64,000 nucleotides of DNA from positions 248,001 through 312,000 of the forward strand of contig NZ_NFHP01000002.1 in assembly GCF_002159335.1 (NCBI RefSeq), given 5' to 3'. The notes under the pieces were generated by a model. The model had not been told where the DNA came from and ran no database searches. It saw only the letters and a program-made list of their open reading frames with translations. The position numbers and the translations under genes were made by a program. Positions 7,499 to 18,893 of the stretch are shown here, piece after piece (position 1 is the stretch's first letter; every line of letters begins with the position of its first letter). The stretch is from Collinsella sp. An7 (GTDB taxonomy: Bacteria > Actinomycetota > Coriobacteriia > Coriobacteriales > Coriobacteriaceae).

Positions 7499-8671
7499 CT
7501 ATCCAAAGAGCCGGCAGGCGTTCTCCCAAGCGGCACGGGCAATCTCCGCGGCACCTTCACCCGTGCGCCCCGCACGGTCTCGGCAGAGGGCATCGGCGGT
7601 GAAAGCGATCATGGCCGGCTCGCACTCCAGCCCGCGGATGGGCTCGGGCGCCATGTAGGGGCAGTCCGTCTCAAAGAGGATGCGGTCGAGCGGGCATGCG
7701 GCAAAGGCCTCGCGGATGTGCTCGTTGCGCTTGAAGGTCGCCGCGCCGCCAAAGGCGATATGGCAGCCCAGCTCGAGAAAGCGCTCCATAGTCGGGCGGT
7801 CCTCGCCAAAGCAGTGGAGCACACATCCCGCCGCCGGCACGCCCACCTCGACGAGCACGCGCCGCGCGTCGGCATGGGCCTCGCGGCGCTCGTCGGCATC
7901 GTCGTTGCGCAGGTGCAGCTCAACGGGGACGTTGCGCGTCACGGCAAGCTCGAGCTGACGGGCCATGACCTCAATCTGCACGTCGTGCGGCGCTGCCTCG
8001 ATCTGATCGTCCGCGTCAAAGTGGTAGTCGAGCCCGATCTCGCCAATGCCCGTGCACCGCGAATCGTTGAGCGCGGCCTCGAGCACCGCATGGGTGGCGT
8101 CGGTGTAATCGGGCGCGCCATAGGGGTGCACACCCACGAGATAGCGGACGTGATCGATGAGGTCGAGCGCACCTGCTGCTACCGTGGCCGGCGCAGTCGC
8201 CGCATTCGACATCGGCGACGCCGTAGCTGGCGCCGTCACCGTAGCGCCACTGCCCAGACCTGCCGCAAGCGCGCGCTCGGCATCACCCGCAGTAGGCGCA
8301 CCAGCACACACATCCGCCCCCGCAAGCGCACGGGCAGCGTCGAGCCATACCGCAAGCTGCTCTTGGTAGGCGGCAAGGCCGTCAAAGTCGTCGCCAAGCG
8401 GGTCGTAAAGCGTCACGATGCGCCGCACACCCGCCCGCGCCGCACGCACGAGCACCTCGGCCGGGTCTTTTGTCCAAAAGCAGGTGAGGTGCGCATGGGT
8501 GTCAAAAAGCGGAGCAAGCGGGGCGGGCGCCTCGTACGTCTTCTCGCGATGCTTGACGTGCTTGGTAAAAACGAGAGGCGCCGCCAAACTTCCCGCCGGG
8601 GCCGCCGCTACAGCAGAAAGAGGCGCATCGGCAGTAGCGGTCGCACCGGGCACGCCACACACCCTGCTCAT
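7499..8671 (-). CDS. TatD-family metal-dependent DNase
   Basis: 390 residues against about 260 for typical TatD. The domain starts near residue 55 (LFDTHAHLT, metal-binding HxH at 59/61), followed by TGIGEIGLDYH, PVELHLRN, VLHCFGE and the final ETDCPYMAP metal site. The extra length is a 50-residue N-terminal extension and an Ala/Thr/Pro-rich insert at about 140-180. TatD enzymes are 3'-5' exonucleases on single-stranded DNA and RNA. The ATG overlaps the rsmA stop (ATGA), so translation is coupled to rsmA; this pairing is common in Gram-positive bacteria. Confidence 0.9.
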   Translation of the reverse strand: MSRVCGVPGATATADAPLSAVAAAPAGSLAAPLVFTKHVKHREKTYEAPAPLAPLFDTHAHLTCFWTKDPAEVLVRAARAGVRRIVTLYDPLGDDFDGLAAYQEQLAVWLDAARALAGADVCAGAPTAGDAERALAAGLGSGATVTAPATASPMSNAATAPATVAAGALDLIDHVRYLVGVHPYGAPDYTDATHAVLEAALNDSRCTGIGEIGLDYHFDADDQIEAAPHDVQIEVMARQLELAVTRNVPVELHLRNDDADERREAHADARRVLVEVGVPAAGCVLHCFGEDRPTMERFLELGCHIAFGGAATFKRNEHIREAFAACPLDRILFETDCPYMAPEPIRGLECEPAMIAFTADALCRDRAGRTGEGAAEIARAAWENACRLFG

Positions 8672-9549
8672 CGCGCATCCTTTGCGTCCGACGCAAACGC
8701 GCCCAGGCGGTCGAGCTCTTCGGTCAGCCGCGTAAAGTCCGCAACCGAGAGCGTCTCCGCTCGAGCGGTGGGTGCGATACCCGTGCTCTCAAAGGCGACA
8801 TCGAGCAGCGCCTTGTCAAAGCCCGACGAGCTCATGGAATTGCGGATGGTCTTGCGGCGCTGGGCAAAGGCGGCGTCGATCACGCGCATGGTGCGCGCCG
8901 CCTCGGGTCCGGGTGCAGCCACGCGCTCGAGCCGCACCACCGCAGAATCCACGTGCGGGGCGGGCAAAAAGCAACGCGGCGGCACCTCAAAGCGCCCCGT
9001 GACTTCGGCAAAAAGCGCGAGCTTTGCCGTATAGCCGCCGTAGGCCTTGGTGCCCGGACGCGCCGCGATGCGGTCCGCTACCTCCTTCTGAACCATCACG
9101 ACCGCACGCTCGAGCGCCGGCATCTGCTCAAAGAAGGAGAGGATGATCGTCGCCGCCACGTTGTAGGGAAGGTTTGCCACAAAGACCGTGGGCTCCCCGC
9201 CCGCCGCCTCGGCTATGGAGGCGAGCGGGACCTTGAGGGCGTCGCCCATGATGAAGCTAAAGGAGGGGTGCGCCTGGGCGTGGGCGGCGAGCACGGGCTC
9301 GAGCTCGTGGTCCATCTCGATGGAGACCACCCGGCTCGCCTCCTCCACGAGCGCGAGCGTGAGCGTGCCGATGCCCGGCCCCACCTCGAGCACGCGCTCG
9401 GAGCCCGTGAGCCCGGCAAGCGCCATGATGCGCTCGATCACATGGTTGTCGATGAGGAAGTTCTGGCCCAGACGGTGCTTGGTCGCCAGGCCAAACGCCT
9501 CGAGCAGCTCGCGCGTGGCGGCAGGACTCGCCAGCGGTGATGTGGTCAT
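8668..9549 (-). CDS. rsmA: 16S rRNA dimethyladenosine transferase
   Basis: 293 residues. Makes the two m6,2A residues near the 3' end of 16S rRNA using SAM. Visible motifs are the family start KHRLGQNFLID, SAM motif I VLEVGPGIGTLT, the acidic loop IEMD, and the catalytic NLPYNVA motif near residue 125. The C-terminal helical domain carries the RKTIRNS signature. Length is normal. AGAGGAA precedes the ATG. It is followed without gap by tatD and preceded by metG on the same strand. Confidence 0.96.
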   Translation of the reverse strand: MTTSPLASPAATRELLEAFGLATKHRLGQNFLIDNHVIERIMALAGLTGSERVLEVGPGIGTLTLALVEEASRVVSIEMDHELEPVLAAHAQAHPSFSFIMGDALKVPLASIAEAAGGEPTVFVANLPYNVAATIILSFFEQMPALERAVVMVQKEVADRIAARPGTKAYGGYTAKLALFAEVTGRFEVPPRCFLPAPHVDSAVVRLERVAAPGPEAARTMRVIDAAFAQRRKTIRNSMSSSGFDKALLDVAFESTGIAPTARAETLSVADFTRLTEELDRLGAFASDAKDAR

Positions 9550-9685: not shown

Positions 9686-11299
9686 TCAATCCACGAGACG
9701 CGGGAACAGCGGATCGCCCTTCTCCACCGGCTCACCGCCGGCCAGGCCGCCCCACACGCACGCGGCGGCAAGGTCCGTCGAAGGCTCGGTGGAAAGCGAC
9801 AGGCGGCGGCGCACCTCGGCCGAGATGCACGGCATGAAGGGCTCATAGAGTTCAGCCGCAATGCGGATGACCTCGATGAGGCTCCAGATCACACGGGCGA
9901 GCTCGTCAGCCTTTTCGGGATCCTTGGCGAGCGCCCAGGGCGCGCTGTCCTCGATGTAGTGGTTCGCAGCCGAGACGATGGCGAACACCTCACCCGCAGC
10001 CGCACCGTAATCCATCTGCTCCATCGCGGCGGCATAGCGCTCAAAGACACCCGCACAGGCATCGCGCACCGGCGAGGGCGCATCAAAGTCCGCAGGGCGC
10101 ACGGGCGCGCAACCGTCAAAGTACTTGACGCTCATGTTGAGCGTGCGCGACACAAGGTTGCCCCAGCTGTTGGCAAGGTCAGCATTGTAGACCTGGCGCA
10201 TACGGCCCCAGCTGATGGGCGCGTCGGTGCCGTGCGCCACGTCGGTCATAAAGTAATAGCGGTAGGCCTCGACGCCCAGCAGGTCGATGACCTCCTCGGG
10301 GGCGATGGCGTTGCCGCGGCTCTTGCTCATCTTCTCGATCTTGCCCGTCTCCTCGTTACGCACCGTGAGGAAGCCGTGCACAAAGACGCGCTCGGGCAGC
10401 GGCAGCCCCGCCGCCATGAGGAGCGCCGGCCAGATCACGCAGTGGAAGCGGATGATGTCCTTGCCCACCACGTGAACCTGCGCGGGCCAGCGACGGTGGA
10501 ACTCCGACTCGTCGTCCGAACCGTAGCCGAGCGCCGTGATGTAATTGATGAGCGCGTCCACCCACACGTAGGCCACGTGCTTCTCGTCAAAGGGGAAGGG
10601 CACGCCCCAGTCAAAGGTCGAGCGGCTGATGGAGAGGTCCTTGAGACCGCCCTTCACAAAACTGAGCACCTCGTTGCGACGGGTCTCGGGCTGGATAAAG
10701 TCGGGATGCGCCTCATAGAAGTCAAGAAGCGGCTGCTGGAACTCGGAAAGCTTGAAGAACCAGCTCTCCTCCTTGATGCGCTCGAGCGGACGATCGCAGT
10801 CGGGGCAGAGCGGATGCTCCGGGTCGGCCGGCTCCTCGCCGGCGGCACGGCGATCCTCCTCGTGGTGGCGGACCTGCGTGTCGGTAAAGTAGGTTTCGTC
10901 CGGACGGCAGTACCAGCCGTCGTAGGCGCCCTTGTAGATATAGCCGCGGTCGAGGAGCACCTGGAGGAACTTCTGGACGCCCGCGATGTGGCGCGGCTGG
11001 GTGGTGCGAATGAAGTCGTCGTTGGAAATCTCGAGCGTGCGCCAGAGGTCAGCGAAGGCCGGCTCCATGGAATCGCACCAGGCCTGCGGCGAGTCAAAGC
11101 CGTTCTTCTCTGCCGCCTCGGCGACCTTCTCGCCGTGCTCGTCCATGCCGGTGAGGAACTTGACGTCGCACCCGCACGCGCGGCGGAAGCGCGCCTGCAC
11201 ATCGGCAAGGATGGTGCAGTACGCCGTTCCGAGATGCGGCTTGGCGTTGACGTAGTAGATGGGCGTGGTGATGTAGTACGACGGCTTGGTGTGCTCCAT
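9686..11299 (-). CDS. metG: methionyl-tRNA synthetase
   Basis: 537 residues, class I synthetase. The start at 11299 has GGAAGGA and gives the standard N-terminus ending YYITTPIYYVNAKPHLGTAY, which includes the HIGH equivalent (HLGT). The KMSKSRGN loop is near residue 320. A zinc-like CPDCDR lies in the connective region. It lacks the C-terminal tRNA-binding EMAP domain of long forms. The 264-bp gap upstream shows no recognisable T-box or S-box. It lies in the order rsmI-metG-rsmA-tatD. Confidence 0.95.
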   Translation of the reverse strand: MEHTKPSYYITTPIYYVNAKPHLGTAYCTILADVQARFRRACGCDVKFLTGMDEHGEKVAEAAEKNGFDSPQAWCDSMEPAFADLWRTLEISNDDFIRTTQPRHIAGVQKFLQVLLDRGYIYKGAYDGWYCRPDETYFTDTQVRHHEEDRRAAGEEPADPEHPLCPDCDRPLERIKEESWFFKLSEFQQPLLDFYEAHPDFIQPETRRNEVLSFVKGGLKDLSISRSTFDWGVPFPFDEKHVAYVWVDALINYITALGYGSDDESEFHRRWPAQVHVVGKDIIRFHCVIWPALLMAAGLPLPERVFVHGFLTVRNEETGKIEKMSKSRGNAIAPEEVIDLLGVEAYRYYFMTDVAHGTDAPISWGRMRQVYNADLANSWGNLVSRTLNMSVKYFDGCAPVRPADFDAPSPVRDACAGVFERYAAAMEQMDYGAAAGEVFAIVSAANHYIEDSAPWALAKDPEKADELARVIWSLIEVIRIAAELYEPFMPCISAEVRRRLSLSTEPSTDLAAACVWGGLAGGEPVEKGDPLFPRLVD

Positions 11300-11562
11300 G
11301 GCGCGGATCCTTCCTATTGCGAGCCGGCGGGCATGAGACCCGGGGCAAGGCGCTTGAGATGGGGAAGCGCCGATTACCAGCATTCGCGACCAGAGACGCC
11401 GTGGCGAGGCGGATGCGGGCAAAGGCGAGGAAGGCGCAGCGGCGCTGCCCCGACGCAATGTAAGCCCGCAGGCGCCCGACACGGCGCGGCTAGATGCGGA
11501 ATGCTTTGATCAGCGTTTCTCTAGAAACACATGGTACCGCAAGTGGCGCTGCCTGCGGAACG

Positions 11563-12729
11563 TCACCCTTGGAGCTCGAGCACGAGCTCATAGACCGCGC
11601 GTTTGCGGCGGGAGTACCGCTGCGAGAGACGCTTGGCGATGGCGTTGGCCGGCTCGCCCTCCTCGAGAGCGCGAAGGATATCGGCACGGAGCGCCTCGTC
11701 GGGGTCGAGCGCGGGGCCTGCTCCCGCTGCGGTGCCATCCCCTTGCGCCGCGGCCAGGCCCGCAGCGTGCAGACGACCGAGGACCTCAAGTTCCTCAGCG
11801 CTGGGCGGAGCCACCACGATTACCATCTCGCCCTTGAGCGGCGCACCCGTCTCTTCACGTTGGGCTACCTCAGAGGCAAGCTCTACCGCAGTGCCGCGCA
11901 GCACCTCCTCGTGGAGCTTGGTGAGCTCGCGGCAGAGCGCAGCCTCGCGCGCGGGGAAGGCAACGGCGAGCGCATCGAGTGTCGCCCCTACGCGGTGCGG
12001 CGACTCATAAAAGAGTAGCGCCCCCGGCACCGGGGCAAGCTCGGCCAGACGGCGAGCGCGCTCCCCCGCCTTGCGGGGCAAAAAGCCCTCAAAGAAGAAG
12101 TGGTCGCAGGCAATGCCCGAGCTCACAAGCGCGGTGATGCAGGCCGTCGGCCCAGGGATGACCTCCACGGGCACCTCGGCCGCACGCGCCGCCTCAATGA
12201 GCACCTGCCCGGGGTCGGACACTCCCGGCATCCCCGCGTCGGAGGCAAAAGCGAGCACCTCGCCTGCGGCGAGACGTTCCACGAGCTCCGGGGCGCGGCG
12301 AGCGATCACGTTCTCGTCGCAGCGGATAAGCGGGCGCGAGACGCCTGCAGCAGCGAGCAGCTTACCCGTCACCCGCGTGTCCTCGCAGCAAACGGCATCC
12401 GCTGCTCGGAAGGCCTCGACGGCGCGCGGCGAGAGGTCGCCGAGATTGCCGATGGGAGTGCCGACCACGTAAAGCCGGCCCGATCGAGCAGCGGCACCCC
12501 GCGTCTTGCGTGATGCCTTGGACGCCGTCGCGGTGCCGGCACGCTGAGAATCTGCTCCCGGAGCGTCCACCTCTGGGACGCTTGCGCCCGGCACGACCAC
12601 TTCCCGTGCGGCTGTCTTCGGTGCGGCAACCTCCGGCACGTTCGCCCCCGGCGCACTCACACCCGCTCCGGCCTTATCCAGCGCGGCTGCGTCCACCACG
12701 CGCGCGTCCGCCCGGCTCTTCCCCGCCAT
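11563..12729 (-). CDS. rsmI: 16S rRNA (cytidine-1402-2'-O)-methyltransferase
   Basis: 388 residues. The methyltransferase core begins near residue 86 (LYVVGTPIGNLGD) and contains ASDAGMPGVSDPG and FYESPHR, all diagnostic for RsmI. The first 85 residues are an Ala/Pro/Val-rich extension with two copies of a PGA(N/S)VPEV unit and are not part of the family core. I chose the ATG at 12729 because an upstream GTG overlaps the Shine-Dalgarno (GGAGGT). The C-terminal helix-rich domain (residues about 320-388) is present. The gene begins 13 bp after the GH5-like gene and should be co-transcribed with it. Confidence 0.93.
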   Translation of the reverse strand: MAGKSRADARVVDAAALDKAGAGVSAPGANVPEVAAPKTAAREVVVPGASVPEVDAPGADSQRAGTATASKASRKTRGAAARSGRLYVVGTPIGNLGDLSPRAVEAFRAADAVCCEDTRVTGKLLAAAGVSRPLIRCDENVIARRAPELVERLAAGEVLAFASDAGMPGVSDPGQVLIEAARAAEVPVEVIPGPTACITALVSSGIACDHFFFEGFLPRKAGERARRLAELAPVPGALLFYESPHRVGATLDALAVAFPAREAALCRELTKLHEEVLRGTAVELASEVAQREETGAPLKGEMVIVVAPPSAEELEVLGRLHAAGLAAAQGDGTAAGAGPALDPDEALRADILRALEEGEPANAIAKRLSQRYSRRKRAVYELVLELQG

Positions 12730-12742
12730 GCGCACCTCCGCG

Positions 12743-13807
12743 CTAATCGATCATCGCGCGCTCGAGCGTGCCGAGCGCCACGCGGGCGTCCCACGCGGGG
12801 ATGCGCTTCTCGGTCTTCCAGGTCTGGAAGAACCAGCCGCGCGCATCAGCAAACGAGGCGAGCTCGTTAGAGATAAAGACGCGCTCGTAGGCGGCATGGC
12901 CCTCGGGCGTCATCGACGCGTTGGCAAAGACCGCCGCGCCCGACCACTCGCCCACGATCACGGGGAACCCTGCCGCGCGCGCCTCCTTGATGAGCTTGCG
13001 GTTGCGCGCAATCGCCGCCGAGAGGCCGCGCGGGCTCGTGATGTCCTGGGCATGCTCGTCGCGGTAATGATAGAGATGCACGTCCATGGCAACGCCCTCG
13101 TACTTGTCGCCCCGCATAAAGTGCTTCCACGCGGCCGGGTCGCCCGAGGCAGAGAAGACCACGAGCTTGTCGTCGGCCATGTGCAGGCGCACGAGCTCGT
13201 AGGCATCGCGATAGAAATTGCGCAGGTAGTGGCTCGGAATACCCTCCGTTACATTAAAGAACCCGCGGCGTCGGCTCATGATTGGCGAATCGAGGAGCTC
13301 AAGGCCGAGCAGACCCTCGCGCATGCCGTAGCGCGCGGCAAGCCGCTCGAGAACGTTGAGGGCGATATGGCGGCCGTTGGCGGACGAATGCCAAGCGGCA
13401 GTGGATTCCGGCGTACTCGGCGTGGCGTTGGAATCGCCTTGGCCGCCGGGCACCGTTGCGAGGTCGAGGAGCACGCCCATATGGTACTTCTCGGCCCACT
13501 CAAAGGCACGGTCGATGTAGTCGACGAGGGGGATATAGACCTCGCTCTCGCCTTGCGAACCAAAGGCGTACCACGGCACGGGCAAGCGCACGGCGTTGAG
13601 GCCGATGGCCGTGATGCGGCGAAAGTCGTCCTCGGAGATAAAGGTCTCGAGGTGGCGACGCAGGCGCTCGTTGTAGGTGGTCGCACCGAGAGCGCTCTGC
13701 AGCTCGGAGTCGTTAGACGCGCCCGTTGCCGCAAAGAGCGATGGCGTGACCCAGGGCTCCGGGATAAACCATCCGGAAAGATTGACGCCGCGGATCCTTT
13801 CAGTCAT
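12743..13807 (-). CDS. GH5-like glycoside hydrolase with altered acid/base site
   Basis: 354 residues, a TIM-barrel protein of the exo-beta-1,3-glucanase/cellulase type: RGVNLSGWFIPEPWVTPSLF at the start, VRLPVPWYAF near 73-82, DLATVPGGQGDSN at 115-127 and DVHLYHY near 242. The nucleophile motif VIVGEWSG (Glu about 287) is intact. The strand-4 motif that normally reads LLNEP reads LLDSP (171-175), so the acid/base Glu is Ser. There is no signal peptide; the protein is probably cytoplasmic. It may be catalytically reduced, a transglycosylase-like variant or a binding protein. The start at 13807 has GAGGGGAC. Confidence 0.82.
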   Translation of the reverse strand: MTERIRGVNLSGWFIPEPWVTPSLFAATGASNDSELQSALGATTYNERLRRHLETFISEDDFRRITAIGLNAVRLPVPWYAFGSQGESEVYIPLVDYIDRAFEWAEKYHMGVLLDLATVPGGQGDSNATPSTPESTAAWHSSANGRHIALNVLERLAARYGMREGLLGLELLDSPIMSRRRGFFNVTEGIPSHYLRNFYRDAYELVRLHMADDKLVVFSASGDPAAWKHFMRGDKYEGVAMDVHLYHYRDEHAQDITSPRGLSAAIARNRKLIKEARAAGFPVIVGEWSGAAVFANASMTPEGHAAYERVFISNELASFADARGWFFQTWKTEKRIPAWDARVALGTLERAMID

Positions 13808-14059
13808 GCCGTCCCCTCTCTCTCGCTCGCGCCTCGCGCATATCGGTGCCCCTGAGTATAGCCGAACGAGCTGCGGAGCCGGGCTTCTCGGTTGGCAATC
13901 GCGCGCTCCCGGCATCCCGGAGTACGTCATTTGGCAAAGCTACTGGGCCTTGCTCGCACCATTGCCCAGGCCATCGGCTGTTACGCAGCCCGCCATGCGG
14001 TCGGGGGCCGCAAAACCCTGAAAGACGGCGCCCTTGCCGCCAGAACATGCCGCACTACG

Positions 14060-14086: not shown

Positions 14087-14101
14087 TCGCAATGCAAAGG
14101 G

Positions 14102-14174
<73 letters not shown>

Positions 14175-15881: not shown

Positions 15882-16346
15882 CTACATCACCACCCCCGGG
15901 CGCCACGGATCGACCGTGACCGCCCGCTCGTGCTCCAGAACCGCCGGAGCCCCCAGACGCACCCCCGCGATAGAAAGCCCGCTCGGCCAGGGCGAGAAAC
16001 GCATCGTGCACCGGTACGTGTGAAGCGCACCCACGAGCGAGAGCATCGCCGCGCTCTCCGCACCCTCCTCATCGCAGGAAACCGACACCTCAACGGGGTA
16101 GTCGCCCATGGCCCGGGCAAGCTCACCCTCTACCGCCTCAACCGCGTCCGCAGCCTCCTCGCCGCCTGCAGGCGAGACACCCTGGGCCATCACCACATCG
16201 GCCGCCACCCGATCAAAGCGCACCACTGCCGCGGCGTAGAGCATCAGGTTGTAGACGATGAGTGCAAGCACCAGGAGAGTGGGGAGCACGACCGCCATCT
16301 CGACCATCGCCTGCGCCGACGTCTCGTGTGCCCTGACGCGCATCAT
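15882..16346 (-). CDS. TadE-like minor pseudopilin
   Basis: 154 residues from the ATG at 16346, which overlaps the upstream stop (ATGA). The N-terminus has the TadE pattern, a short charged leader then SAQAMVEMAVVLPTLLVLAL, with Glu five residues into the hydrophobic helix as in type IV prepilins. The rest is a globular domain with two Cys (about 98 and 121) that could form a disulfide. It would be processed by a prepilin peptidase, which is not in this window. Confidence 0.82.
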   Translation of the reverse strand: MMRVRAHETSAQAMVEMAVVLPTLLVLALIVYNLMLYAAAVVRFDRVAADVVMAQGVSPAGGEEAADAVEAVEGELARAMGDYPVEVSVSCDEEGAESAAMLSLVGALHTYRCTMRFSPWPSGLSIAGVRLGAPAVLEHERAVTVDPWRPGVVM

Positions 16347-18382
16347 GGCAGCTCGCCTCCCATCAGGTCCTGCACTTGGATGGTGAGGGGAATCGACCCG
16401 CCGCCGGGCAGCGGAATCTCCGCAAGGGTGAACGTGGCGCCGCTCAAGGTCTCCCCCACCTCGTACGAGAGCGCCTGCATCATCGGCGCCGGATCCGTAG
16501 ACCCCACGGGAAGCGATCGAAGCGCGCTCTGCACGTCCGAGAGCCCCGACGAACCCGACCGTGCTATAACGTTGGCGGAGTCGGTGAGCACCGGCTTCAT
16601 GAGGGTGAGGTCCACCGGCTCGAGCCCAAGAGCATGAACCGCACCGCTCACTTGGTTGGAGAGCCACGAGGCTATCGACCCCATGCCGAGCGAGCTAAGT
16701 CCGCCAAGCAGGTCGTCCATCACCCCCGCGAGACCGTCAGCCGCATTGCCGTACGTCACGAGCAGCCGGCCCCACAGCCCCATCACGTCGTCGATAAGTC
16801 CCGCCGCACCTCCGCCGCTCGTGCGCGAGGCGATGGTGCTGAAGAAATCCGCAAGCACATTGTTCTCCTCGGTCGCGGGGTCCGGGGCGAGCACCGATCC
16901 CGCAACGGCACCGCGCGCGGTAAGCATCCCTCCGGGCGCAAAGGCGCTCTCGAGCTCCTCGGGCGTTGTCACCTCGCCCGTCACGGCAAAGCCGACGCAC
17001 CCGTCGCGCCCGGGCGGGGCGATGTGCGGTCGCTTGCCCGCGAGCGTTCCGAGTGCCGCCTCAAAGGCATCCGAGGCACCCTCCGCCTCTTGTCGAACCT
17101 CCTGCTCAAGCTCGAGCTCCCGGTCGCGACAGGAGATGTACTCGTTGAGCGCGAGCGTGAAGGCTCGCAGGTGGTACTCAAAACCGTTCTCGATGGAGGT
17201 CGAAGCAGCCGGCGCACGACCCACGTCGCCAACTCCAAACCGGCAGGTGGGGCACTCCCGCGCCGTTCCGTTCTCGGTCGCGGCGAGCGAAAGTGCCGGC
17301 CCCGCCGCGCCCGCAGCGCCCGGGCAGGCCGCGCTGTAGTGAAGCGTGAGTCCCTCCGCCTCGACCGTGGAGGGCCAAACCGCCTCGGTGTAGAGGGAGG
17401 TCGCCCGCACATCGTCGGTATTGCGGGGCAGAAGCGGAACCGTGGAGACCACCCGCCCGTCCACCTCCTCGATCCGCGCCGCCTCGAGCTCCTCGAGCGC
17501 AAAGCGGTAGAACGCAGAGCGCGCGGCGGCATCGGCTGCAGCCTCAGTTCCGGGCCCCTCGGGCTCGTTATGGGCCAAGCGCCAGCGATAGTACGCCCGG
17601 GCACGATCGAGACCGACCTGAGGCTCCCACGTGATGCTCGAGGCATAGTCGGGGTTCTCCCTGGCAGTAAGGCCCGAGAGACGCGCCGCCCGCTCCTGCA
17701 TGTTGGCGCCGTCGCTGCCGCAGTCTGCCAACCAGGCAGCCCGCTTGGCCTCCTCGGTAGCGGCGGAGGCCTCGGCAAGGCGCTCGGCAGCCGCGCCTAG
17801 CTCGTCCGATGCTTGAGAGAGCCCCTCGGTGGGGATGCCCTCACCCTCAAGCGCCGGAAACTCCGATGCGGAATCGCGCGGGACCGCGAGCGCTGTGCCC
17901 GTGTACGAGACCTGCTCGCTCCCCTGCGCCGTACAGGTGCGCGCCGCATTGGCGGCCACCAAGTACGGCAGCGCGGACTCGAGCGCGGAGAGCCCGCGCG
18001 ACGCCGAGGCCGCCAGCTTGTTTCTGAGCTCGAGCATGCGGATCCCCGCCTGAACGGTCTCGCCCGCGGCGGCCTGCGCACCCGGCACCAGCATGCCCAC
18101 CAAGCCGGCCCCGGTGGTGCAGAGCCCCGCGAGCCCCATGCTCAGCACCGCCGCATCGGCCACCGTAGCCGCCGTGCGGTAGGACGCAACCACATTGGAC
18201 CCAGCAAGCGCCGTGGCATCAGCTGCAACCTGCACCTCCCCCGAGCGGGAGAGGGTCCACGCCGCCGTAATCGCCGAGAAGAGCAACGTGAGCGTTACCA
18301 GCATGGTTACGGCAGCAGCCACCGTGGTGTAGGCGCCGTCCTCGATGAACAGGTCAATCCCAAGCCGCAGTCCACGTTTCAT
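16343..18382 (-). CDS. large TadG-like pilus-associated protein
   Basis: 679 residues. I chose the ATG at 18382 because it has GGAGGGGAG; it overlaps the upstream TadE-like gene by 29 bp. One N-terminal hydrophobic helix (about 22-45: AAAVTMLVTLTLLFSAITAA) is followed by AADATALAGSNVVASY, the vDaAALAGA signature of TadG/Flp-assembly proteins. The long remainder is Ala/Glu-rich, with predicted coiled-coil stretches (about 200-230 and 430-460) and a Cys cluster near 405-420. It is far longer than usual TadG and is a candidate surface or tip subunit. Confidence 0.75.
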   Translation of the reverse strand: MKRGLRLGIDLFIEDGAYTTVAAAVTMLVTLTLLFSAITAAWTLSRSGEVQVAADATALAGSNVVASYRTAATVADAAVLSMGLAGLCTTGAGLVGMLVPGAQAAAGETVQAGIRMLELRNKLAASASRGLSALESALPYLVAANAARTCTAQGSEQVSYTGTALAVPRDSASEFPALEGEGIPTEGLSQASDELGAAAERLAEASAATEEAKRAAWLADCGSDGANMQERAARLSGLTARENPDYASSITWEPQVGLDRARAYYRWRLAHNEPEGPGTEAAADAAARSAFYRFALEELEAARIEEVDGRVVSTVPLLPRNTDDVRATSLYTEAVWPSTVEAEGLTLHYSAACPGAAGAAGPALSLAATENGTARECPTCRFGVGDVGRAPAASTSIENGFEYHLRAFTLALNEYISCRDRELELEQEVRQEAEGASDAFEAALGTLAGKRPHIAPPGRDGCVGFAVTGEVTTPEELESAFAPGGMLTARGAVAGSVLAPDPATEENNVLADFFSTIASRTSGGGAAGLIDDVMGLWGRLLVTYGNAADGLAGVMDDLLGGLSSLGMGSIASWLSNQVSGAVHALGLEPVDLTLMKPVLTDSANVIARSGSSGLSDVQSALRSLPVGSTDPAPMMQALSYEVGETLSGATFTLAEIPLPGGGSIPLTIQVQDLMGGELP

Positions 18383-18893
18383 AACTCCCCTCCAGCCATG
18401 ACGGGCGACCCGCATAGGTCACCTCAACGGTTACCTCCACATCGCCCTGAGCGTTGCGCGAGCCCCAGAGCCCCACGAATGCGCCGAGCACCGGAAGCGG
18501 CGTCACCGCCCCCGTAATGGCAACGCGCACGGTGCCCTCCCCCGACGAAGCGGGTGAGCACTCGACATCCCACGAGAGAGGACCTCCCGCATGGAAAATC
18601 GAGAGGTCGGGTACTGCCGCGAGCCGCCTGAGCGCAAAGGCGCGATACGCATCGGACCCATCGCCGCCAGACTCCCCCTCGGCCCGAGAATCCGCCTCCC
18701 CCGTGACCATGAGCCGCGCCGTCTCGGCCGCCGCACCCTCCATAACGGCACGGGTGTAGAGCACGCAAACCGGCTGCAGCGCCAGCAGTATGACGATGAG
18801 AAAGCTCGGCAGCAGCACGGCAGCCTCCACCGTTGCCTGCGCGGTGGCCTCGCCCAAGACCCACCGCACACGACGTGCTGCCCGGCGCGCCAT
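18354..18893 (-). CDS. TadE-like minor pseudopilin
   Basis: 179 residues from the ATG at 18893, one base after the upstream stop. The leader is ATAQATVEAAVLLPSFLIVI, a textbook TadE N-terminus with Glu at position five of the hydrophobic helix. The downstream globular part is beta-rich with one Cys. Together with the proteins at 15882 and 18895 it makes a set of prepilin-like proteins. The in-frame region upstream to 19463 overlaps other genes and is not counted. Confidence 0.82.
   Translation of the reverse strand: MARRAARRVRWVLGEATAQATVEAAVLLPSFLIVILLALQPVCVLYTRAVMEGAAAETARLMVTGEADSRAEGESGGDGSDAYRAFALRRLAAVPDLSIFHAGGPLSWDVECSPASSGEGTVRVAITGAVTPLPVLGAFVGLWGSRNAQGDVEVTVEVTYAGRPSWLEGSYETWTAAWD

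What the first reader, a model, noticed from the sequence alone, without database searches (positions are those of the whole stretch)
13270..13300. GH5-like enzyme with Ser in place of the acid/base Glu
The strand-4 motif LLNEP, where Glu is the proton donor, reads LLDSP; the strand-7 nucleophile Glu (GEWSG) is kept. The gene is intact, in an operon with rsmI, and has no signal peptide. A kept fold with one catalytic residue lost suggests a new role: binding, activated-substrate transglycosylation or a pseudoenzyme.
Basis: partly seen in the sequence, partly recalled or inferred. Interest (0 to 1): 0.6.

Follow-up and report, generated by a model that had tools for sequence, protein, structure and literature searches.

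The report
Conserved dead glycosidase beside rsmI
A gene that looks like a sugar-cutting enzyme has lost its cutting residues yet is kept in nearly every member of two families of (mostly gut) bacteria, always next to the same rRNA-modification gene, so it probably does a new, non-cutting job inside the cell.

Summary
In detail: window 12743-13807 (-) encodes a 354-aa cytosolic GH5_9-like protein (closest solved relatives: exo-beta-1,3-glucanases) with Asp173-Ser174 where catalytic relatives have Asn-Glu, and with GEWS (Glu287) kept. It is not a strain mutation. The strand-3 active-site His is also lost (Ala117). All 60 Coriobacteriaceae genomes checked carry the gene, as do 101 of 104 Atopobiaceae genomes. 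Every one of 190 copies sits directly upstream of rsmI; none of 19 intact GH5_9 paralogues does. All 19 paralogues keep His/Asn/Glu/Glu. The rsmI-linked clade has lost the His throughout. Its acid/base is Ser, Thr or Ala in Coriobacteriaceae and varies freely in Atopobiaceae. Its nucleophile is Lys, Ala, Ser or Thr in most Atopobiaceae. One 73%-identical orthologue in the window's own family has lost both glutamates (LLDAP, IGAWS). Purifying selection is strong (dN/dS about 0.1-0.2) and the barrel is predicted intact. Best reading: an ancient, conserved pseudo-glycosidase, probably a ligand-binding or partner protein co-expressed with rsmI. Function is unproven. I found no description of it in the papers searched.

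The parts
12743..13807 (-). GH5_9-like pseudo-glycosidase CDS, 354 aa, ATG start at 13807, stop at 12743-12745
   Evidence: homologues begin at the same Met
13812..13820 (-). putative ribosome-binding site (AGGGGA core)
   Evidence: read directly in the sequence
13586..13588 (-). Arg74 codon (strand-2 active-site Arg), kept in all linked and canonical sequences
13457..13459 (-). Ala117 codon, where all 19 canonical paralogues have the strand-3 active-site His
13286..13291 (-). Asp173-Ser174 codons, in place of Asn-Glu (acid/base) of the NEP motif
13076..13078 (-). His244 codon (strand-6 active-site His, kept)
13070..13072 (-). Tyr246 codon (kept in all but one of the Coriobacteriaceae read; variable in Atopobiaceae)
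12947..12949 (-). Glu287 codon, nucleophile position of GEWS; Ala in L226, Lys/Ala/Ser/Thr in most Atopobiaceae
12818..12820 (-). Trp330 codon of the clade-invariant GWFFQTWKT motif
11563..12735 (-). rsmI (16S rRNA C1402 2'-O-methyltransferase), 7 nt downstream; catalytic core preceded by a low-complexity N-terminal extension
   Evidence: TIGR00096 207.9 bits; synteny
9686..11482 (-). metG (methionyl-tRNA synthetase), same strand, next in cluster
8668..9549 (-). rsmA/ksgA (rRNA adenine dimethylase), same strand
7499..8671 (-). tatD (TatD-family DNase), same strand
14100..14174 (-). tRNA-Phe(GAA), upstream neighbour

Best explanation
The gene encodes an ancient, vertically inherited pseudo-glycosidase: a cytosolic GH5 subfamily-9-like barrel that no longer hydrolyses beta-glucosides. 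Shown: the active-site His was lost at the base of a clade found only in Coriobacteriaceae and Atopobiaceae; the NEP Asn-Glu and then, in several lineages, the nucleophile Glu were replaced; fold, open frame, chromosomal position (immediately 5' of rsmI) and most pocket-wall residues (R74, H244, W330, the GWFFQTWKT motif, plus a new set R180, G189, R196, N197, R200, T300, G303) stayed under purifying selection. Inferred: it works by binding, not catalysis. The barrel mouth probably holds a sugar-like or other small ligand (or a protein partner), and the protein acts as a sensor, chaperone or partner, made together with RsmI and the rRNA/tRNA housekeeping genes downstream.
For: Motif and gene verified. 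All 60 Coriobacteriaceae genomes and 101 of 104 Atopobiaceae genomes have a match; no other family in 398 class genomes has more than an E~1e-4 hit. 190 of 190 linked copies are directly upstream of rsmI, 0 of 19 canonical paralogues are. Canonical paralogues are 19/19 H-N-E-E, while the linked clade has 0 of 96 His, mostly Asp for Asn, nine different residues at the acid/base and E/K/A/S/T at the nucleophile. The linked clade is one clade (SH-aLRT 99) with 1 His loss, at least 11 Glu/non-Glu changes at the acid/base and 6 state changes at the nucleophile, on a tree built without those columns (22/11 and 5 after dropping long branches). A complete single-contig genome of another genus of the same family carries a 73%-identical orthologue with LLDAP and IGAWS, so neither Glu, still followed by rsmI. 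dN/dS is 0.10 against the nearest relative and has a median of 0.20 within the family. AlphaFold2 models of the window protein (pLDDT 80, pTM 0.85) and of a double-mutant orthologue (pLDDT 88, pTM 0.89) both match GH5_9 structures best (TM about 0.80). The catalytic face is as conserved as the rest even where the nucleophile is gone (mean entropy 1.22 vs 1.27 bits).
Against: Glu287 and Asp173 are invariant, and residue 174 is nearly always Ser/Thr, across Coriobacteriaceae apart from L226 and L214. That is more constraint than a bystander site would show, so some chemistry could persist there. Fourteen representative Atopobiaceae sequences keep both glutamates. No activity, ligand or partner was measured. 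Synteny with rsmI could reflect operon position rather than joint function: genus g56 of Atopobiaceae keeps rsmI without this gene.
Confidence: 0.68

Rival explanations
1. In Coriobacteriaceae the protein is still an enzyme with altered chemistry: Glu287 attacks the anomeric carbon of a glycoside with a good leaving group (activated sugar, thioglycoside or phosphate), and no acid/base Glu is needed. It would work like myrosinase or engineered acid/base mutants, or as an intracellular phosphorylase or transglycosidase; Asp173 might assist.
For: Glu287, Asp173, Arg74, His244, Tyr246 and Trp330 are kept in all 32 family representatives, and 55 of 56 distinct sequences have Ser/Thr at 174 through many synonymous codons (TCG, TCC, TCT, TCA, AGT, ACG, ACC).
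Against: An orthologue of the same family with 73% identity has Ala at both positions and Phe at 246. Orthologues at the same locus in the sister family lost the nucleophile. The strand-3 active-site His is gone. No carbohydrate gene is nearby: the neighbours are rsmI, metG, rsmA, tatD and a tRNA.
Confidence: 0.17
2. Some Atopobiaceae orthologues (acid/base Glu kept, nucleophile Ala) are natural counterparts of engineered glycosynthases, making beta-glucosides from alpha-activated donors such as UDP-glucose or glucose-1-phosphate.
For: Eight of 96 representatives are Glu/Ala, the configuration of deliberate glycosynthase mutants such as PDB 4m80 (E292S of C. albicans exoglucanase; listed).
Against: The same locus elsewhere is Asp/Lys, Ala/Ser, Thr/Ser, Gln/Ser or Asn/Thr, which no such mechanism explains. 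The strand-3 His is absent. It would not explain the window protein (Ser/Glu).
Confidence: 0.05
3. A decaying relic of an exo-beta-glucanase on its way to loss.
For: Catalytic columns drift in Atopobiaceae, and pairwise dN/dS is higher there (median 0.40). Genus g56 lacks the gene.
Against: Near-universal retention, intact frames, dN/dS 0.1-0.2 in Coriobacteriaceae, about 50 near-invariant columns over both families, and fixed synteny.
Confidence: 0.05

Closest known systems
GH5 subfamily 9 exo-beta-1,3-glucanases (PDB 6zb9 moose-rumen enzyme, 8z2w AoBgl, 1cz1 C. albicans Exg)
   Same: Barrel fold; N-terminal GVNL.GW; strand-2 Arg; DxHxY; GEWS; C-terminal W.WKTE..WD motif; about 28% identity
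   Different: No strand-3 His, Asn-Glu replaced by Asp-Ser, no signal peptide, fixed position beside rsmI; GH5_9 assignment rests on structural best matches, not on a CAZy subfamily model
Canonical GH5_9 paralogues in the same two bacterial families (L103, L104, L176-L192)
   Same: About 36-38% identity for the two Coriobacteriaceae copies, same fold family
   Different: 19/19 keep His, Asn, Glu and Glu; none is beside rsmI; patchy distribution
Known pseudo-glycosidases (Klotho KL domains in GH1, YKL-40/CHI3L1 chitinase-like lectins, beetle GH28 pseudoenzymes, PMC6549527)
   Same: A glycosidase fold kept after loss of catalytic acids, with a new binding or regulatory role (known examples; general knowledge apart from PMC6549527)
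   Different: Those are extracellular or eukaryotic; this one is a cytosolic bacterial core gene of the GH5 barrel tied to an rRNA-methyltransferase operon, with no known ligand
Myrosinase-type or engineered acid/base-less retaining glycosidases
   Same: Nucleophile Glu kept, acid/base Glu absent (window protein)
   Different: Orthologues also lose the nucleophile; no activated substrate or carbohydrate gene context

Membership tests
GH5 glycoside hydrolase (catalytically competent) | GH5 sequence/fold (Pfam Cellulase) | tested here: met
   PF00150 24.2 bits vs cut-off 23.5; 75 of 76 clade members match PF00150; Foldseek best hits GH5_9
GH5 glycoside hydrolase (catalytically competent) | Acid/base Glu at the end of strand 4 (NEP) | tested here: not met
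   Ser174, aligned with Glu167 of 6zb9
GH5 glycoside hydrolase (catalytically competent) | Nucleophile Glu at the end of strand 7 | tested here: met
   Glu287 in the window; not met in L226 or in most Atopobiaceae orthologues
GH5 glycoside hydrolase (catalytically competent) | Strand-3 active-site His and NEP Asn | tested here: not met
   Ala117 and Asp173; 19/19 canonical paralogues have His and Asn
GH5 glycoside hydrolase (catalytically competent) | Hydrolytic activity | not testable with these tools
   needs a bench assay
GH5 subfamily 9 | Closest characterised relatives are GH5_9 exo-beta-1,3-glucanases | tested here: met
   formal CAZy subfamily assignment not available
Pseudoenzyme (pseudo-glycosidase) | Enzyme fold kept, catalytic residues lost, gene under purifying selection | tested here: met
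Pseudoenzyme (pseudo-glycosidase) | Absence of catalysis demonstrated | not testable with these tools
   inferred only
Acid/base-less retaining glycosidase (myrosinase-like) | Conserved nucleophile across orthologues | tested here: not met
   nucleophile lost in Atopobiaceae and in L226

The most novel reading that the evidence does not exclude
A cytosolic pseudo-GH5 serves as a sugar- or metabolite-sensing partner of RsmI or of the rRNA-maturation operon (rsmI-metG-rsmA-tatD), tying carbohydrate status to ribosome maturation in Coriobacteriaceae and Atopobiaceae. It would be a core, lineage-defining gene whose ancestor was a beta-glucan hydrolase.
Probability: 0.15. Interest if true: 0.75.

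Novelty: new variant of a known kind. Interest (0 to 1): 0.52.

Why it matters
Most pseudo-glycosidases known are eukaryotic or secreted. Here is a bacterial core gene, present in nearly every Coriobacteriaceae and Atopobiaceae genome (Collinsella, Enorma, Olsenella and relatives), that any annotation pipeline will call a cellulase or GH5 enzyme although its catalytic residues are eroded. Sampled orthologues show successive stages of loss (Asn-Glu kept, Glu/Ala, Asp/Lys, neither Glu) at one fixed locus, which makes it a usable natural series for studying how an enzyme becomes a non-enzyme. It also warns against counting this gene as carbohydrate-degrading capacity in gut-microbiome surveys. 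Its link to rsmI points to a testable role in translation-related housekeeping.

Tried and rejected
Strain mutation or sequencing error: rejected, conserved in the family. Another Glu taking the acid/base place: Glu170 of LGLE170LLDSP is nearby but is equally invariant in catalytic paralogues, so it is not a substitute; no inserted Glu is seen in the alignments, and no atomic coordinates were available to measure distances. A decaying relic: rejected on dN/dS and retention. A separate intact paralogue doing the catalysis in this genome: none found with this protein as query; three other weak PF00150 hits in the genome were not characterised. Basic RNA-binding character: predicted pI is about 6.0, the same as catalytic paralogues, so no support. 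Viral or mobile origin: no relative in viral contigs. Literature: nine searches found no description of this clade; the library lacks most subscription papers. The 'catalytic face' entropy comparison used hand-drawn loop limits from DSSP and is indicative only. dN/dS values for Atopobiaceae pairs are near saturation. The 190 linked copies include the same genomes seen through two collections (128 distinct sequences).

Full report
What is there. The ORF at window 12743-13807 (-) encodes 354 aa starting MTERIRGVNLSGWF. A ribosome-binding site precedes the ATG, and strand 1 of the barrel starts at residue 7, so there is no signal peptide. Pfam gives Cellulase/GH5 just over its cut-off (24.2 vs 23.5 bits). 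The best solved relatives are GH5_9 exo-beta-1,3-glucanases: 6zb9 at E = 4e-43 by sequence and at Foldseek E = 1.4e-26, TM 0.80 by predicted structure (pLDDT 80, pTM 0.85). In the alignment, acid/base Glu167 of 6zb9 falls on Ser174 and nucleophile Glu295 on Glu287. The strand-3 His falls on Ala117 and the NEP Asn on Asp173.

Is it conserved? Seventy-nine loci from genome contigs and searches of whole genomes show that the gene is a core gene: 60 of 60 Coriobacteriaceae genomes at least 90% complete, 101 of 104 Atopobiaceae genomes, and nothing comparable in other families of the class or in a sample of the phylum (which otherwise finds only partial hits at E = 2e-20 or weaker). Among 56 distinct Coriobacteriaceae sequences residue 174 is Ser or Thr in 55 and Ala in one, spelled with eight different codons, and 173 is always Asp. 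The later-fetched L226 adds a second Ala.

Position. All 190 copies of this clade (128 distinct sequences) lie directly upstream of rsmI on the same strand, usually within some tens of bases (median 22 nt from domain end to rsmI core); none of 19 catalytic-type GH5_9 paralogues from the same families does. In the window the rsmI start lies 7 nt after the stop codon, and metG, rsmA and tatD follow. In some Atopobiaceae yaaT/ricT lies upstream, and in genus g56, which lacks the gene, yaaT precedes rsmI directly. So the gene sits in a translation-related cluster and is dispensable for keeping rsmI.

Catalytic residues across the clade. The 19 paralogues all read Arg, His, Asn, Glu, His, Tyr, Glu at the seven active-site columns. 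In 96 representatives of the rsmI-linked clade (clustered at 90% identity) the strand-3 His is never present; Asn is Asp in 80; the acid/base is Glu 30, Ser 28, Asp 23, Thr 5, Ala 5, Asn 2, Arg, Gly, Gln 1 each; the nucleophile is Glu 47, Lys 35, Ala 9, Ser 3, Thr 2. A maximum-likelihood tree built without these columns makes the linked clade one clade (SH-aLRT 99) and needs one change for the His, 23 state changes for the acid/base (11 between Glu and not-Glu) and six for the nucleophile; dropping the long branches gives nearly the same counts.

The telling case. L226, from a complete one-contig genome of another genus of the window's family, is 73% identical to the window protein over 353 residues without a gap, sits before rsmI, and reads LLDAP and IGAWS. 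Both catalytic glutamates are gone while everything around them is kept. This is the nearest natural control for whether Glu287 matters, and it says that the conserved function can do without it. It is also a nucleophile loss independent of that in Atopobiaceae.

Selection and fold. dN/dS against the nearest relative is 0.10 (dS 0.81, dN 0.084); the family median is 0.20. A model of an Atopobiaceae orthologue with Ala/Asp/Asp/Lys at the four positions has pLDDT 88 and pTM 0.89 and again matches GH5_9 structures. About 50 columns are near-invariant over both families. Some are shared with catalytic relatives (R74, E170, D242, W288). Others are not seen in the paralogues: R180, G189, R196, N197, R200, T300, G303, W325, W330, K331, T332; of these, the C-terminal W.WKTE..WD stretch is shared with fungal GH5_9. 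Many lie on the loops at the barrel mouth, which suggests, without proving, that the protein still binds something there.

Interpretation. Shown: conserved, syntenic, purifying selection, fold kept, catalytic set eroded several times. Inferred: a non-catalytic role at the barrel mouth, co-expressed with rsmI. The alternative that Coriobacteriaceae members keep Glu287 for an activated substrate remains open at about 17%. The function itself is not known, and I found nothing on this clade in nine literature searches of the open-access library.

Noticed in passing
window 12510-12735 (-): RsmI of this genome appears to have a 75-80 aa low-complexity N-terminal extension (VPGASVPEV-like repeats) before the LYVVGTPIGNLGD core; in C. 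aerofaciens the core starts about 22 nt after the pseudo-GH5 gene.
   Followed up: partly
L060, L145, L147, L151, L077, L202, L205, L210: Natural orthologues with the acid/base Glu kept and Ala at the nucleophile, the configuration of engineered glycosynthases.
   Followed up: partly
L218, L221, L222 (genus g56 of Atopobiaceae): Lack the pseudo-GH5 gene; yaaT/ricT directly precedes rsmI, a natural loss or empty site for comparison.
   Followed up: partly
L105 (G017 contig C124): A second, Atopobiaceae-type copy (Asp/Lys) on a 3.8-kb contig of a Coriobacteriaceae assembly, most likely contamination.
   Followed up: no
window 16343-18415 (-): Large 690-aa ORF without a Pfam match, next to a likely pilus/secretion-type protein gene; conserved upstream of the pseudo-GH5 gene in most Coriobacteriaceae loci.
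   Followed up: no
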